The position numbers and the translations under genes are program-made. Source: Corallium rubrum (lineage: Eukaryota; Cnidaria; Anthozoa; Scleralcyonacea; Coralliidae). Taken from it: a DNA stretch of 64,000 bases. How positions within the stretch are numbered: position 1 is the first letter of the stretch; each line of letters opens with the position of its first letter. Below the pieces are notes generated by a model, which ran no database searches, was not told the origin of the DNA, and was given only the letters and a program-made list of their open reading frames with translations. This document shows positions 18,645-45,100 of this stretch, in pieces. Where the stretch lies: contig OZ036010.1 of NCBI GenBank assembly GCA_964035015.1, forward strand, positions 10,315,783 to 10,379,782, in the 5' to 3' direction.

Positions 18645-18813
18645 ACGGGGTTTAGTTTGTTTTGGGGAAATTTGGGCTTCTTGGTTACAATGCCTTATGA
18701 CGTACGCGGATGGATCATTAATAGTGAAATCTATTCTTATGCATAGTTGTCATTTGCGTACGTCATAAGCATTGTTACCGAATGCCCAATTTTTCTCCAA
18801 GAACGAACTATCC

Positions 18814-18950
18814 ATGTAATGTAATGTAATGTAATGTAATGTAATGTAATGTAATGTAATGTAATGTAATGTAATGTAATGTAATGTAATGTAATGTAAT
18901 GTAATGTAATGTAATGTAATGTAATGTAGTGTAATGTAATGTAGTGTATG
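18814..18950 (+). repeat. (GTAAT)n microsatellite
   Basis: About 26 near-perfect pentamers with two GTAGT variants near the right end. The equivalent spot in copy 2 (35,911-35,930) has only three units, so the array expanded after duplication or shrank in copy 2. Confidence 0.95.
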
Positions 18951-19019
18951 TGATGCAATTCTCACGATCGTATTTTGAACGAGCTTTAATAGCTCATAGG
19001 CGAAAGTGGTTAAATAAAT

Positions 19020-39199: not shown

Positions 39200-42100
39200 A
39201 TGGCGGCAGCATGTGTAGGTAAGTTGAGGAAGAAATGTGGAGAGTTGTGTGAACTGTGAGCTTCAGACTCGTTTCGTGCACGTTTCAATATCATTTTATT
39301 TAAAGTAAAAAGTTATACAGTAACAATCACTGTCCGCAATTAGCAAAGGCTAGGCGAGGCGAACAGTGATAGTTTAGAAAAATTTGAAAAAGATCTCAAG
39401 GCTAGATCCAGTAAATAATAGCTATCAATAAGTAACTATATATATATATATATATATATATATATATATATATATATATATATATATATATATAAAACTA
39501 GAAATTACTATCGCAAGTGATGTGCTGCCTCAAATGGGACAAAAACTTTTAGCCTACTCCACAAGCAACTCTGTGTAGTCTCCCAACATTGCCCATTCCA
39601 CCCAAGATTGCCCACTCCACCCAAGATTGCCCACTTCACCCAAGTTTTTCTCACCTCTTCACCATAAGAGCCCACAGAGTTGCCTGTGAAGGACACTGGA
39701 AAGTCCAAAAGTTTAATATTAATTACAATAGAGTATTTACACATTGCTTCTATATTTTTTAATTATAAAACTGAAACCTACAAGTTACTACAACCACGGC
39801 TATAACTTATCACTTGACATGATATGGGAAGGGTTTTGACAGGATATACAGTATACACGATTAATATACCAATATTAAATAATCATTCCTCTTGCTCTAA
39901 TACTGTGGCAAAACTAGCACCCCAGCTACATTGTATTGAATATGCCGATTGAGCAGCTATCATATTTCTCAGTCATTGTGGGTTTTTTCGGCAGTCATTA
40001 TATTGTACTCTTGGCATTTGGATTTTCCTTTACTAAACATTCTAATGGGTTTGTTTCACATCTTGAGGTCATTGTGACCTGTGCTACAAATGAAATACGT
40101 GTGAACCTACTTTGAAAGAAGGTGTGGAGAATACAATACATTTTCCTCAAGATTCCTGTCAATCTTATTATATAGGAACTCCAATATTTCTTCATAGCAA
40201 TGATGTAGATACAGGTACAATTTAAAACAGCTTAATCATATTCCAATCAAAAGCTTTTCCAACAGCCAAATTTTCCAACAACAATAAGGATTTTCAGACA
40301 AAAATCCCTGTGAAGGTGTGTGTGTGGGGGGGGGGGGGGTGCCCCCTTTGCCCTCCTTGCCCTCTTGGTCTCCTTCTGAAGCTATGCCACTGCCAGAGCT
40401 TCAAAGATACCTTGAGTTCATGATTAATGGTGCTTGCACGCACCTCTAGATAGCAGATACTAGCCAAATTTGAACATTTGCCTTGTTAATTTACCCTTCA
40501 CTTGTTAATACGTCTGACATTGTACAATATTTTAAAAGGGATGGGTACATTAGCAGTTAAATATGGTTAGTAATTATTTACTTTCTTCTCACAGGAAGGC
40601 AAGTAGACAGTGCAGTTGTTCCTCCCAAGAGGCCCAGCTATGGTACCAAGGGAAGGGTTATTCAGCTTCATGCTAATTTCTTTGAATTGAAGTTGCCAAA
40701 AGGTGACATCCATCATTACGATGTCGCCATCACTCCAGACAAATGCCCAAGAGCTGTCAACCATGCTGTGGTACAAACAATGGTGGACCAATATCATAAA
40801 ATGTTTGGAGGTCAGAAACCTGTATTTGATGGAAGGAAAAATCTGTATAGTCGGAGCCCATTGCCTATTGATAAAGAGAAGGTAAAGACTGACTAAAAGA
40901 TCGAGCTAGGCTGGAAACACATTACCTGCAAACTGACTGCACATTTCCTCAAGATCTTTACCCTCAGACTTGCCTTCATATAACCCTCAAACCACCTGTT
41001 CATTGCCTGCAGATGGACTGCACATTGCCTGTGGACTGACTGCATGTTGCCCACAGACTCACTGCACGTTGCCCACAGACTGACTGCACATTGCCCAGAC
41101 TGACTGCACATTGCCTGCAGACTGACTGCACATTGTCCACAGACTGACTGCACATTGCCCACAGATTGACTGCACATTGCCCACAGACTGACTGCACATT
41201 TCCCACAGAGTGACTGCACATTGCCTGCAGACTGACTGCACATTTCCCACAGACTGACTGCACATTGCCTGCAGACTGACTGCACATTTCCCACAGACCG
41301 ACTGCACATTGCCTGCAGACTGACTGCACATTGCCTGCAGACTGACTGCACATTGCCTGCAGACTGACTGCACATTGCCCACAGACTGACTGCACATTGC
41401 CTGCAGACTGACTGCCCATTGCCTGCAGACCAACTGCACATTGCCGACAGACTGACTGCCCATTGCCTGCAGACTGACTGCACATTGCATGCAGACCAAC
41501 TGCACATTGCCCACAGACTGACTGCCCATTGCCTGCAGACCAACTGCACATTTCCCACAGACTGACTGCCCATTGCCTGCAGACTGACTGCCCATTTCCT
41601 GCAGACTGACTGCACATTGCCCACAGACTGACTGCACATTGCCTGCAGACTGACTGCCCATTGCCCACAGACTGACTGCCCATTGCCTGCAGACTGACTG
41701 CACATTGCCTGCAGACTGACTGCCCATTGCCTGCAGACTGACTGCACATTTCCCACAGACTGACTGCACATTGCCTGCAGACTGACTGCACATTGCCTGC
41801 AGACTGACTGCCCATTGCCTGCAGACTGACTGCACATTTCCCACAGACTGACTGCACATTGCCTGCAGACTGACTGCACATTGCCTGCAGACTGACTGCA
41901 CATTGCCCACAGACTGACTGCCCATTGCCTGCAGACTGACTGCACATTGCCTGCAGACTGACTGCACATTGCCTGCAGACTAACTGCACATTGCCCACAG
42001 ACTGACTGCACGTTGTCCACAGACTGACTGCACATTGCCTGCAGACTAACTGCACATTGTCCACAGACTGACTGCCCATTGCCTGCCAACTGACTGTCCA

Positions 42101-45100
42101 TTGCCTGCAGACTGACTGCACATTGGCTGCAGACTGACTGCCCATTGCCTGCAGACTGACTGCCCATTGGCTGCAGACTGACTGTACATTGCCTGCAAAC
42201 TGACTGAACATTGCCCACAGACTGACTGCACATTGCCCACAGACTGACTGCACATTGCCTGCAGACTGACTGCACATTGCCTGCAGACTGACTGCAGGTG
42301 ACTGCACACTTAGGGGCCGTTTACATGAATCCGGATTGAGTTTCAATCCGGATTGAACTTATTCCGCTTCTGATCAAACCCCTTTACATGTATCTGTTTA
42401 CATGAATCCGGATTGAGATTAGCTCATTCCAGATTGAGTTGTTTCCGATTCTCATTTGGGATTGAAATCTCATTCCGGATTGAAATTTCGTTCCGGAATC
42501 ATGTAAAGGCTATAGTTTCCACCCAGGAAAATCTTCCGCAGTACAGGAACGGACAGGAAAGTTTTCTTTGTCTTGTGAGCTCTCGGTCGGAACTAATGAC
42601 ACAAAGGAAACTTTCCTGTCCGTTCTTATCCTGCGGAAGATTTTACTGAGTGGAAACTAGCCTTAAAGGCAGTGCGAGTTTCATTCCGGAATGAAAAACG
42701 TGACAGAGAGGACGAGAACAAACAATGCATGCGTGTTTTCAAATATTTACGGGTTTCAGATTTTGGGCGGATTTCAATCCAGAAACCCAATTCCCATGTA
42801 AACACGGAATGACTTCGCTTTTCAGTCCGGATTGGAACTCAATCCGGATTCATTTAAATGGCCCCTTAGTTGAAAATAGAGAAGAAAAAATATGTGGAAA
42901 ATTCAAAACTTACAATATCAAGTGCTGGCATGTACTACAACAGTAAAAGACTCCTAAGTATTTAATTTTGCTAATTCCCAGTACCTCATGCACCCCCTTC
43001 ATACAGTCGTGCTAGGGATAGAGTATAAAGGTTATAGTAAAACGACACTACAGGTGTGTTAAGACTTGTATAGCATGACAATGTTTCATATTTGATTTGT
43101 AGGTAGAATTTGTTGTGACAATACCAGGGGATAATGACCAAGAAAGACATTTCAAGGTTATTGTAACTTAATTGTTTTCACCAACCAATGTTGATTTTTC
43201 ACCAACCAACTAATACCTCATTATAATGAGTCAAACGATGTCACTAGTACTTTTTTAATTAATGAAATAATTCATGAATTATCGTAGCTAATCCATGAAC
43301 GTATACCACATCACATGCATGAGTTTTGATACCCAATGAAAATTTGTAGGAAACTTCCTAGTGAACTGGATCACATTTCTTAATCTGCATATTGAAATCA
43401 GTATATTGAATACTCGCATTTTGACCAATAGAAATTAAGGCGTTGCCCGAACTTTTAAATTTGCCCTTAAGCTTGACAACACCATAAATTGCCCCTGGTA
43501 ACGTATGCGTTTCAATATTCAAACTCTAAGTCTAAGCTCAACTGAAAATCGCCGTATAAGAGAGAATTTATGCACCTGATAATCACTGTTAAATCCTGTG
43601 ATGAAGTGATATTGCGGGGGGGGGGGGGGGGGGGGTGGGGGGTGTTACATTTTCGCAGTTCCTCCCTTCTATAGCTGCATGTACCCCTGCAGAACACTAG
43701 CTGATAAAGCCTTGTGGTCTTGTTTTAGGTTGCGATCAAATGGGTGGCACTTGTGAGTATGTTTGCACTGGAAGAAGCATTACGCGGCAACATGAAGATG
43801 ATTCCATTTGATTCTATCCAAGCATTAGATGTAGTTTTAAGATATTTCCTGTCATCGCAGTATATTTCCATAGGACGATCGTTTTTCTCACCTCCAACCA
43901 GGAACCATAACTCCTCAAATTTGGAGTGTGGCCGCGAAGTTTGGTTTGGGTTTCATCAAAGTGTGCGTCCTTCCCAATGGAAAATGTTGGTTAATATTGA
44001 TTGTAAGCTATCATAATATGTTTGTTGTGTTTTATTTTTCAAGCTACTGTGTGCGCATTGTGTTGAGTTAACTGGGTTGAGCTGCGAGGAACAACGAAAA
44101 GCTGGATATAGTTAGTTAGTGTGGAAAATGGGTAAACAGGACAGATAAGTGAGTTGCGTGGGAAGGAAGAAATAAAAGAGAAAGAAACAGTTAAGTGAAA
44201 TAGAGAAGAGGTGAAGACAAAAGAAGAGAAAAGAAACATAGAGGAGAGAAATAAATGGAACAGAACAGAACAGAACAGAACAGAACAGAACAGAACAGAA
44301 CAGAACAGAACAGAACAGAACAGAACAGAACAGAACAGAACAGAACGGAGCGGAATGGAACGGAACGGAACGGAACAGAAGACAAGAGAAGAGAAATGAA
44401 GAGGGGAGGAATGGGAAGGGGAGCAGAAGAGTAGTGAAGAAGAGAGGCGGGAAAGAGAAGAGAAGAGAAGAGAAGAGAAGAGAAGAGAAGAGAAGAGAGG
44501 AGAGGAGAGGAGAGGAGAAGGGAAGGGAAGCGAAGGAAGGGGAGGGGAGGGACGGGAGCGGAACGGAAGAGAAAGGAAAAGAGTGGAAGGAGAAGTAAAT
44601 AGAATCGAAGGGAATAATACTTGTTTAGTTAAAGAGAGAACAAGGTAGAAGAAAAGGAAAAATTGGAGCCATGTTGTGGTGGACGTTAATGCAGGGAACG
44701 GAATAAAGCAGAATGAACAGTATTGCATTACAAGTATGATTACATTACAATTACATTTAATATCTTTCTTACAGCTTCAGCTACTGCATTCCACAAGGCA
44801 ATTTCAGTTATAGAATTTCTTTCTGAAGTTATTTGTCAAACCCCACAGCGATTAGCACACCTTAAGACAACCCTTACCGAAGAGGATAGAATAAAATTTA
44901 TGAAAGAAATTAAAGGTAAGCAAAATGGTCGGTCTATTTACAGTTTCTAAAAACTGTGTGTGATCTTGCTCTGTGAGGCGTGTTTCTCCATTCCCGTTTA
45001 CTTGTGAGAAAGCTCCACTCCACACTCCACTCCACTTCACTCTACCCTACCCTACCCTACCCTACCCTACCCTACCCTACCCTACCCTACCCTACCCTAC

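What the first reader, a model, noticed from the sequence alone, without database searches (positions are those of the whole stretch)
18645..43255. Tandem duplication of the Argonaute promoter and first three exons
Promoter-like region, exons 1-3 and introns occur twice in direct orientation about 17 kb apart, giving the gene two 5' ends. Exon 1 of copy 1 is phase-compatible with exon 2 of copy 2, so the locus could use alternative first exons.
Basis: seen in the sequence. Interest (0 to 1): 0.7.

Follow-up and report, generated by a model that had tools for sequence, protein, structure and literature searches.

The report
Partial duplication of an Argonaute gene's start
The first three exons and upstream region of an animal Argonaute gene really do occur twice in a row, but the upstream copy looks like a decaying fragment with a broken exon 2, and part of the locus also appears a further time through an assembly error.

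Summary
Exons 1-3, introns and upstream DNA of an Ago-clade gene lie twice in direct orientation: 18653-26703 (copy 1) and 35743-43257 (copy 2), 4.5% diverged in well-aligned columns. Copy 2 leads into an open N-L1-PAZ-L2 frame and a MID exon. Copy 1 keeps exon 1 and its donor, but exon 2 has 13 net extra bases and stops at codon 95. Of eight exon paths tried, only those joining an exon 1 to copy-2 exon 2 stay open.

Two haplotypes in series is unlikely: no gap lies between the copies and their outer flanks differ. But window 33497-57747 recurs inverted 300 kb away with 5 substitutions, both ends at 200-N gaps: a false duplication. PIWI exons of this gene were found only beyond that other piece. 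A 22-kb insertion separates copy 1 from its former upstream DNA.

Verdict: a real, fairly ordinary partial duplication with a decaying upstream copy. Second-promoter use is possible and untested; plant PEP1 is a published precedent.

The parts
18653..26703 (+). Copy 1 of the duplicated segment (part inside the window; it continues left of the window beyond a 22-kb insertion)
   Evidence: collinear BLAST blocks to 35743-43257; continuation -6017..-3383 vs 32685-35751
20793..20811 (+). Exon 1 of copy 1, coding part (MAAACV + 1 base), donor GTAAGT; the 5' end of the exon is not determined
   Evidence: same bases as copy 2, phase 1
20603..20884 (+). Core around exon 1 (putative core promoter, 5' UTR, exon 1); 3 substitutions in 282 bases against copy 2; found at three places in the genome, one of them the false duplicate
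24738..25037 (+). Exon 2 of copy 1 (N domain), broken: 13 net extra bases, frame stops at codon 95
   Evidence: truncated ArgoN match, profile 1-61 of 142
26482..26535 (+). Exon 3 of copy 1, splice sites as in copy 2, one silent change
26704..28138 (.). Interspersed repeat that begins where copy 1 ends; 28 near-full-length matches elsewhere among the 40 candidates scored, 19 of them starting at this base
26704..35742 (.). Spacer; 32685-35742 is the upstream part of copy 2; no Argonaute exon found in it (best protein match E 0.83)
35743..43257 (+). Copy 2 of the duplicated segment (unit extends left to about 32685)
38343..39009 (.). High-copy interspersed element of about 667 bases (best other copies 97-99% identical) directly upstream of exon 1 of copy 2; not present at full length in copy 1
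39200..39218 (+). Exon 1 of copy 2, coding part
40595..40881 (+). Exon 2 of copy 2 (N domain, open)
43103..43156 (+). Exon 3 of copy 2
43729..44002 (+). Exon 4 (N/L1), single in the window
44775..44915 (+). Exon 5 (L1/PAZ)
45818..45989 (+). Exon 6 (PAZ)
48700..48883 (+). Exon 7 (PAZ/L2)
50341..50463 (+). Exon 8 (L2)
56525..56727 (+). Exon 9 (MID); a very short exon between 8 and 9 is inferred from phase, not found
33497..57747 (.). Stretch present a second time, inverted, at C37:10057082-10032811 (5 substitutions, 25 indel events): false duplication by two overlapping assembly pieces
57748..57947 (.). 200-N scaffold gap that truncates the gene in the window; what follows is probably not the gene's continuation

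Best explanation
A real direct duplication copied at least 10 kb around the 5' end of a conventional animal Ago-clade gene: exons 1-3, introns 1-2 and several kb upstream. (Shown: two copies, shared introns and upstream DNA, differing outer flanks. Inferred: a single tandem event. Whether the 3' part of copy 1 was never copied or was later lost is open.) The downstream copy is the working 5' end, because it continues into an open frame. The upstream copy is a decaying fragment: 13 net extra bases break its exon 2 (they read as a 7-base tandem duplication, which shifts the frame, plus a 6-base net replacement that completes an inverted repeat, as a template switch in a quasi-palindrome would; mechanism inferred); two residues that human AGO2 shares with copy 2 are changed; a 22-kb element with long inverted ends stops 2.1 kb upstream of its start codon; and an interspersed repeat sits at its right edge. 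If its promoter still fires, the expected products are transcripts that stop at codon 95 or, less likely, a long-intron splice from copy-1 exon 1 to copy-2 exon 2 that yields the same protein from a second promoter. Separately, the scaffold holds the copy-2 half of the locus twice because two overlapping assembly pieces were not merged.
For: Collinear blocks, 4.5% divergence. Exon model with splice sites, residues 13-418 aligned to human AGO2 at E 5e-146. Domains ArgoN, ArgoL1, PAZ, ArgoL2, ArgoMid. Broken copy-1 exon 2; outside the extra bases 4 amino-acid-changing and 4 silent differences; at two of the four, human AGO2 has the copy-2 residue. Of eight distinct exon paths tried, two stay open, both using copy-2 exon 2 straight after an exon 1. 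Exons 4-9 single in the window; spacer matches to them no better than E 0.83. Upstream stretch 32685-34994 occurs whole only at copy 2 and copy 1 (its part from 33497 also in the false duplicate), with the same nested repeat. Outer flanks of the copies do not match. 22-kb insertion with about 1.39-kb inverted ends, an 8-base target duplication and an empty site in copy 2. Copy-2 half repeated inverted with 5 substitutions and gap-bounded ends.
Against: Exon 1 of copy 1 and its donor are intact and its 282-base core has only 3 substitutions, slightly fewer than expected if only copy 2 were constrained (P = 0.07, core chosen after seeing the data). Exon 3 of copy 1 is unharmed. Divergence is uneven: 33 of 2270 (1.5%) in 32685-34994, with 300-column bins down to 0.3%, against 138 of 2723 (5.1%) in the other noncoding blocks (p = 6e-13); one simple duplication age does not explain this, and later gene conversion between copies is my guess. 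The spacer 26704-32685 has only short matches left of copy 1 and no target duplication of 5 bases or more was seen at the repeat that ends copy 1, so the event is not a textbook head-to-tail duplication. No reads or transcripts were available.
Confidence: 0.72

Rival explanations
1. Functional dual promoter: exon 1 of copy 1 is a working alternative first exon spliced over 19.8 kb to exon 2 of copy 2, giving the same protein under a second, separately regulated promoter, as in PEP1 of Arabis alpina.
For: Phase 1/1 compatibility and an open 418-residue frame; ATG and donor present; low divergence around exon 1; raised CpG upstream of both exon 1 copies, 1.58 and 1.65; published precedent.
Against: The low divergence is matched by the upstream stretch 32685-34994 (p = 0.52) and is also explained by constraint on copy 2 alone (P = 0.22 whole block, 0.07 core). 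Splicing must skip two copy-1 exons that keep their splice sites. A 22-kb satellite-rich insertion cuts copy 1 off from its former upstream DNA. No transcripts seen.
Confidence: 0.13
2. Copies 1 and 2 are two haplotypes joined in series by the assembler, for instance by a false join inside the interspersed repeat at 26704-28138.
For: 4-5% divergence is within the range recalled for very heterozygous animals. The left side of the copies does match for about 3 kb beyond the window's blocks (-6017..-3383 against 32685-35751), as alleles would. Copy 1 ends exactly at a repeat with many copies. The scaffold demonstrably contains another false duplication at this locus.
Against: No N gap from -30000 to 57747. 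After copy 1 the sequence should resemble exon 4 onward; the spacer has no match at E <= 1e-3 to 43258-64000 and none resumes after the repeat. Left of -6017/32685 only short repeat-like matches remain, down to -30000. The other assembly piece repeats the join of 33497-35742 to copy 2, though it may stem from the same reads. A long-read assembly, inferred from the assembled 14-kb satellite array, should cross a 1.4-kb repeat.
Confidence: 0.09
3. Copy 1 is the remnant of a complete second Argonaute gene: the whole gene was duplicated in tandem and the 3' part of the first copy was then deleted. (A variant of the best explanation about origin, not exclusive of it.)
For: The PEP1 authors suggest such an origin for their case. 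The right edge of copy 1 coincides with an interspersed repeat, a usual site of deletion (recalled).
Against: No trace of exons 4-9 in the spacer. Of 18 protein matches in the genome, 13 lie on this scaffold and all are the window exons, copy-1 exon 2 or the false duplicate; the other 5 belong to other Argonaute genes.
Confidence: 0.25

Closest known systems
PEP1 of Arabis alpina, partial tandem duplication of promoter, exon 1 and part of intron 1 (PMC3527215; passages seen, including part of the abstract)
   Same: Direct partial duplication of the 5' end kilobases apart, one shared gene body, first exons that can join the same exon 2 and would encode the same protein.
   Different: In PEP1 both transcripts were observed; here there are no transcript data. 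Here exons 2 and 3 are duplicated too, exon 2 of the upstream copy is broken, and the gene is an animal Argonaute.
False duplications in genome assemblies, heterotype and homotype (PMC9516828; passages seen)
   Same: The second, inverted copy of 33497-57747 is bounded by scaffold gaps and nearly identical.
   Different: Copies 1 and 2 within the window do not fit well: no gap between them, unmatched outer flanks, 4.5% divergence. Read depth and k-mers, which that paper uses to decide, could not be tested.
Human AGO2 / Ago clade
   Same: N, L1, PAZ, L2 and MID order and sequence.
   Different: Only the 5' part of the gene lies in the window; PIWI exons lie elsewhere on the scaffold and the first half of PIWI was not found.

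Membership tests
Ago-clade Argonaute gene | N, L1, PAZ, L2, MID domains in order | tested here: met
   Five Pfam families over their cut-offs; alignment to AGO2
Ago-clade Argonaute gene | PIWI domain with catalytic residues | tested here: inconclusive
   PIWI profile 166-301 on C37:10017582-10011588; first half not found; a 5-kb N run lies between
Tandem partial gene duplication | Two direct copies that share introns and intergenic DNA (not retrocopies), one lacking the rest of the gene | tested here: met
Tandem partial gene duplication | Head-to-tail junction with definable breakpoints | tested here: inconclusive
   Right edge at an interspersed repeat; left edge about 32685/-6017, only short matches beyond
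Alternative first exons / dual promoter (PEP1-like) | Both first exons phase-compatible with the shared exon 2 | tested here: met
Alternative first exons / dual promoter (PEP1-like) | Transcripts from both promoters | not testable with these tools
   no RNA data
Assembly false duplication (copy 1 vs copy 2) | Gap between the copies | tested here: not met
   no N between -30000 and 57747
Assembly false duplication (copy 1 vs copy 2) | Outer flanks that keep matching, as alleles would | tested here: not met
   the left match runs 3 kb beyond the window's blocks and then stops
Assembly false duplication (copy 1 vs copy 2) | Half or lower read depth | not testable with these tools
   no reads
Assembly false duplication (33497-57747 vs C37:10057082-10032811) | Near-identical copies ending at gaps | tested here: met
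   5 substitutions, 25 indel events in 24251 bases; one end of each piece abuts a 200-N gap

The most novel reading that the evidence does not exclude
Copy 1 is a retained regulatory 5' module: its promoter yields, by regulated choice, either full-length Argonaute (copy-1 exon 1 spliced to copy-2 exon 2) or a transcript stopped in the broken exon 2 ('poison exon'), so a partial duplication has given an RNAi gene a second promoter with a built-in off state.
Probability: 0.05. Interest if true: 0.55.

Novelty: new member of a known kind. Interest (0 to 1): 0.3.

Why it matters
If copy 1 is transcribed, this is an animal RNAi gene with a recently gained second promoter, a good case for watching a promoter duplication decay or be kept. 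Even if not, the locus is a warning: automatic annotation of this assembly could report extra Argonaute genes (the relic, the truncated copy in the window and the other piece) where there is probably one gene plus a fragment.

Tried and rejected
Haplotypes in series for copies 1 and 2: judged unlikely from flank tests and absence of a gap, not excluded. Further Argonaute exons in the spacer: best match E 0.83. Homology resuming after the interspersed repeat at 28139: none (score 25, shuffle maximum 31 of 200). A third true copy: the third hit is the false duplicate. Upstream stretch 32685-34994 as a mere transposon: rejected, as a whole it lies only at the two copies (in part in the false duplicate), though a 575-base repeat is nested in it. 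Selection on copy-1 exon 1: not shown. My note called the 0.26% difference between the two assembly pieces allelic; that is a poor argument, since 5 substitutions suggest one haplotype and say nothing about heterozygosity. Whether the 667-base element upstream of copy-2 exon 1 inserted there or was lost from copy 1 is not settled: copy 1 keeps about 17 bases matching its edge. The species was not identified. The genome-wide count of the 22-kb element's ends was not obtained. Searches for a precedent; only 64 listed one (PEP1); of the others I saw the listings only. That does not prove absence from print. On re-checking I changed three odds: best explanation from 0.74 to 0.72, dual promoter from 0.15 to 0.13 (the upstream stretch diverges as little as exon 1), haplotypes in series from 0.06 to 0.09 (the left flank matches for 3 kb and copy 1 ends at a repeat).
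Full report
CHECK. The window is G000:C37:10315783-10379782 of a 474-Mb genome in 312 sequences. 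Self-comparison shows collinear direct-repeat blocks between 18653-26703 and 35743-43257. Over twelve chosen blocks, counting only columns in well-matching stretches (gaps and poorly aligned columns dropped), 158 of 3500 differ, 4.5%. Stretches between blocks are mostly sequence private to one copy.

GENE. Open frames and splice sites give exons E1 39200-39218, E2 40595-40881, E3 43103-43156, E4 43729-44002, E5 44775-44915, E6 45818-45989, E7 48700-48883, E8 50341-50463 and E9 56525-56727 (end of E6 corrected by one base). E1-E8 translate to 418 residues without a stop; residues 13-418 align to human AGO2 at E 5e-146. Pfam finds ArgoN, ArgoL1, PAZ and ArgoL2 in E1-E8 and ArgoMid in E9. A short exon between E8 and E9 is inferred from phase and was not found.

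COPY 1. E1 (20793-20811) has the same coding bases and donor. E2 (24738-25037) has 13 net extra bases; they read as a 7-base tandem duplication, which shifts the frame, plus a 6-base net replacement that completes an inverted repeat, as a template switch in a quasi-palindrome would (mechanism recalled, paper listing only). The frame stops at codon 95. Elsewhere E2 shows 4 amino-acid-changing and 4 silent differences; at two of the four human AGO2 has the copy-2 residue (alignment). E3 has one silent difference. Of eight distinct exon paths tested, E1b-E2b-E3b and E1a-E2b-E3b remain open through E8 with the same protein; four stop at codon 95 and two at codon 16.

CONSTRAINT. Around exon 1, 8 of 436 columns differ against 138 of 2723 in the other noncoding blocks (Fisher p = 0.0019). 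If copy 2 were frozen and copy 1 neutral, 8 or fewer has probability 0.22. The block's last 165 bases (20884-21048) are an interspersed repeat: 37 of the 40 matches scored lie elsewhere. In the remaining core 3 of 282 differ, probability 0.07 under the same model; the core was chosen after seeing the data. Against constraint: the upstream stretch 32685-34994 differs by 33 of 2270, no more than exon 1 (p = 0.52) and far less than the other blocks (p = 6e-13), with 300-column bins from 0.3 to 3.7%. Divergence is uneven along the unit, perhaps by gene conversion, so low divergence at exon 1 is no proof of function. CpG is raised just upstream of exon 1 in both copies (1.58, 1.65; 0.76 for 18181-57000).

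EXTENT AND HISTORY. Copy 1 continues left of the window: -6017..-3724 matches 32685-34994 at 95.8% including gaps, and -3699..-3383 matches 35397-35751 at 86%. Stretch 32685-34994 as a whole is found at the two copies only, apart from its part from 33497 in the false duplicate; a repeat of about 575 bases is nested in it. Between -3382 and 18652 lies a 22.0-kb insertion with terminal inverted repeats of about 1.39 kb (97%), an 8-base target duplication, and an empty site in copy 2. It holds the 189-base satellite array and a LINE whose second frame has endonuclease and reverse transcriptase domains. Copy 1 ends at 26703, where an interspersed element (26704-28138) begins: 28 near-full-length matches elsewhere among 40 candidates scored, 19 starting at that base. 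No homology to the copy-2 flank resumes after it. Upstream of copy-2 exon 1 sits a high-copy 667-base element.

ASSEMBLY. The only N run in the window is 57748-57947, and none lies in the 30 kb to its left. The spacer 26704-35742 has no match at E <= 1e-3 to 43258-64000 or to 1-18652. Further left the match of 32685-35751 to copy 1 stops at -6017; beyond it, to -30000, only short matches of up to about 220 bases appear. Haplotypes in series would need these flanks to keep matching. However, 33497-57747 recurs inverted at C37:10057082-10032811 with 5 substitutions and 25 indel events. The window piece ends at its gap inside a 68-base tandem repeat; the other piece begins at its own 200-N gap and runs 1.2 kb past the window piece's end before a 5-kb N run at 10026620. 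This is a dovetail overlap that was not merged. PIWI exons of this gene (second half of the domain) were found only beyond that N run, at C37:10017582-10011582, so the window gene and the other are most likely one gene.

READING. Most likely a genuine partial tandem duplication whose upstream copy is a decaying fragment. A second promoter cannot be excluded. The closest published case I found is PEP1 of Arabis alpina, where exon-1 copies 6.3 kb apart are both spliced to one exon 2 (PMC3527215, passages). False duplications and their hallmarks are described in PMC9516828 (passages).

LIMITS. Genome searches score only the best candidates, so counts of repeats are lower bounds.

Noticed in passing
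window 33497-57747 and G000:C37:10032811-10057082: False duplication: two overlapping assembly pieces left unmerged, about 300 kb apart in opposite orientation, each with one end at a 200-N gap.
   Followed up: yes
window 1-18652 (and 3.4 kb to its left): A 22-kb insertion with about 1.39-kb terminal inverted repeats, 8-base target duplication and an empty site in copy 2; its 189-base repeat forms an array of about 72 copies. Element family not identified.
   Followed up: partly
window -925..3399: LINE with two long open frames (428 and 1013 residues) between the inverted ends of that element; the second has endonuclease and reverse transcriptase domains.
   Followed up: partly
G000:C39:11181801-11188867 (L026, L027, L044, L045): Two Argonaute genes with uninterrupted open frames of 1129 and 1138 residues in opposite orientation, 43% and 42% identical to the window gene's E1-E8 part: apparently intronless paralogues with long P/Q/T-rich N-termini.
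   Followed up: partly
G000:C32:530-543 kb, C30:8008-8011 kb, C49:2638332: Further Argonaute/PIWI family matches.
   Followed up: no
window 32685-34994 and -6017..-3724: This upstream stretch differs far less between the copies (1.5%) than the rest of the unit (5.1%), which hints at gene conversion.
   Followed up: partly
25181-25797 and 41001-42296: A 22-base minisatellite in intron 2 of both copies (about 28 and 59 units), leaving long stop-free frames on the minus strand, up to 475 codons.
   Followed up: no
51405-51571 and 21045-21188: A predicted tRNA-Ser (51499-51571, minus) overlaps a repeat also present at 21045-21188 in copy 1; possibly a tRNA-derived short repeat.
   Followed up: no
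57948-64000 and 65660-71718: The piece after the gap begins with a 6.1-kb inverted repeat (97.3%) holding reverse transcriptase and tyrosine-recombinase-like frames; an assembly artefact or a pair of mobile elements.
   Followed up: no
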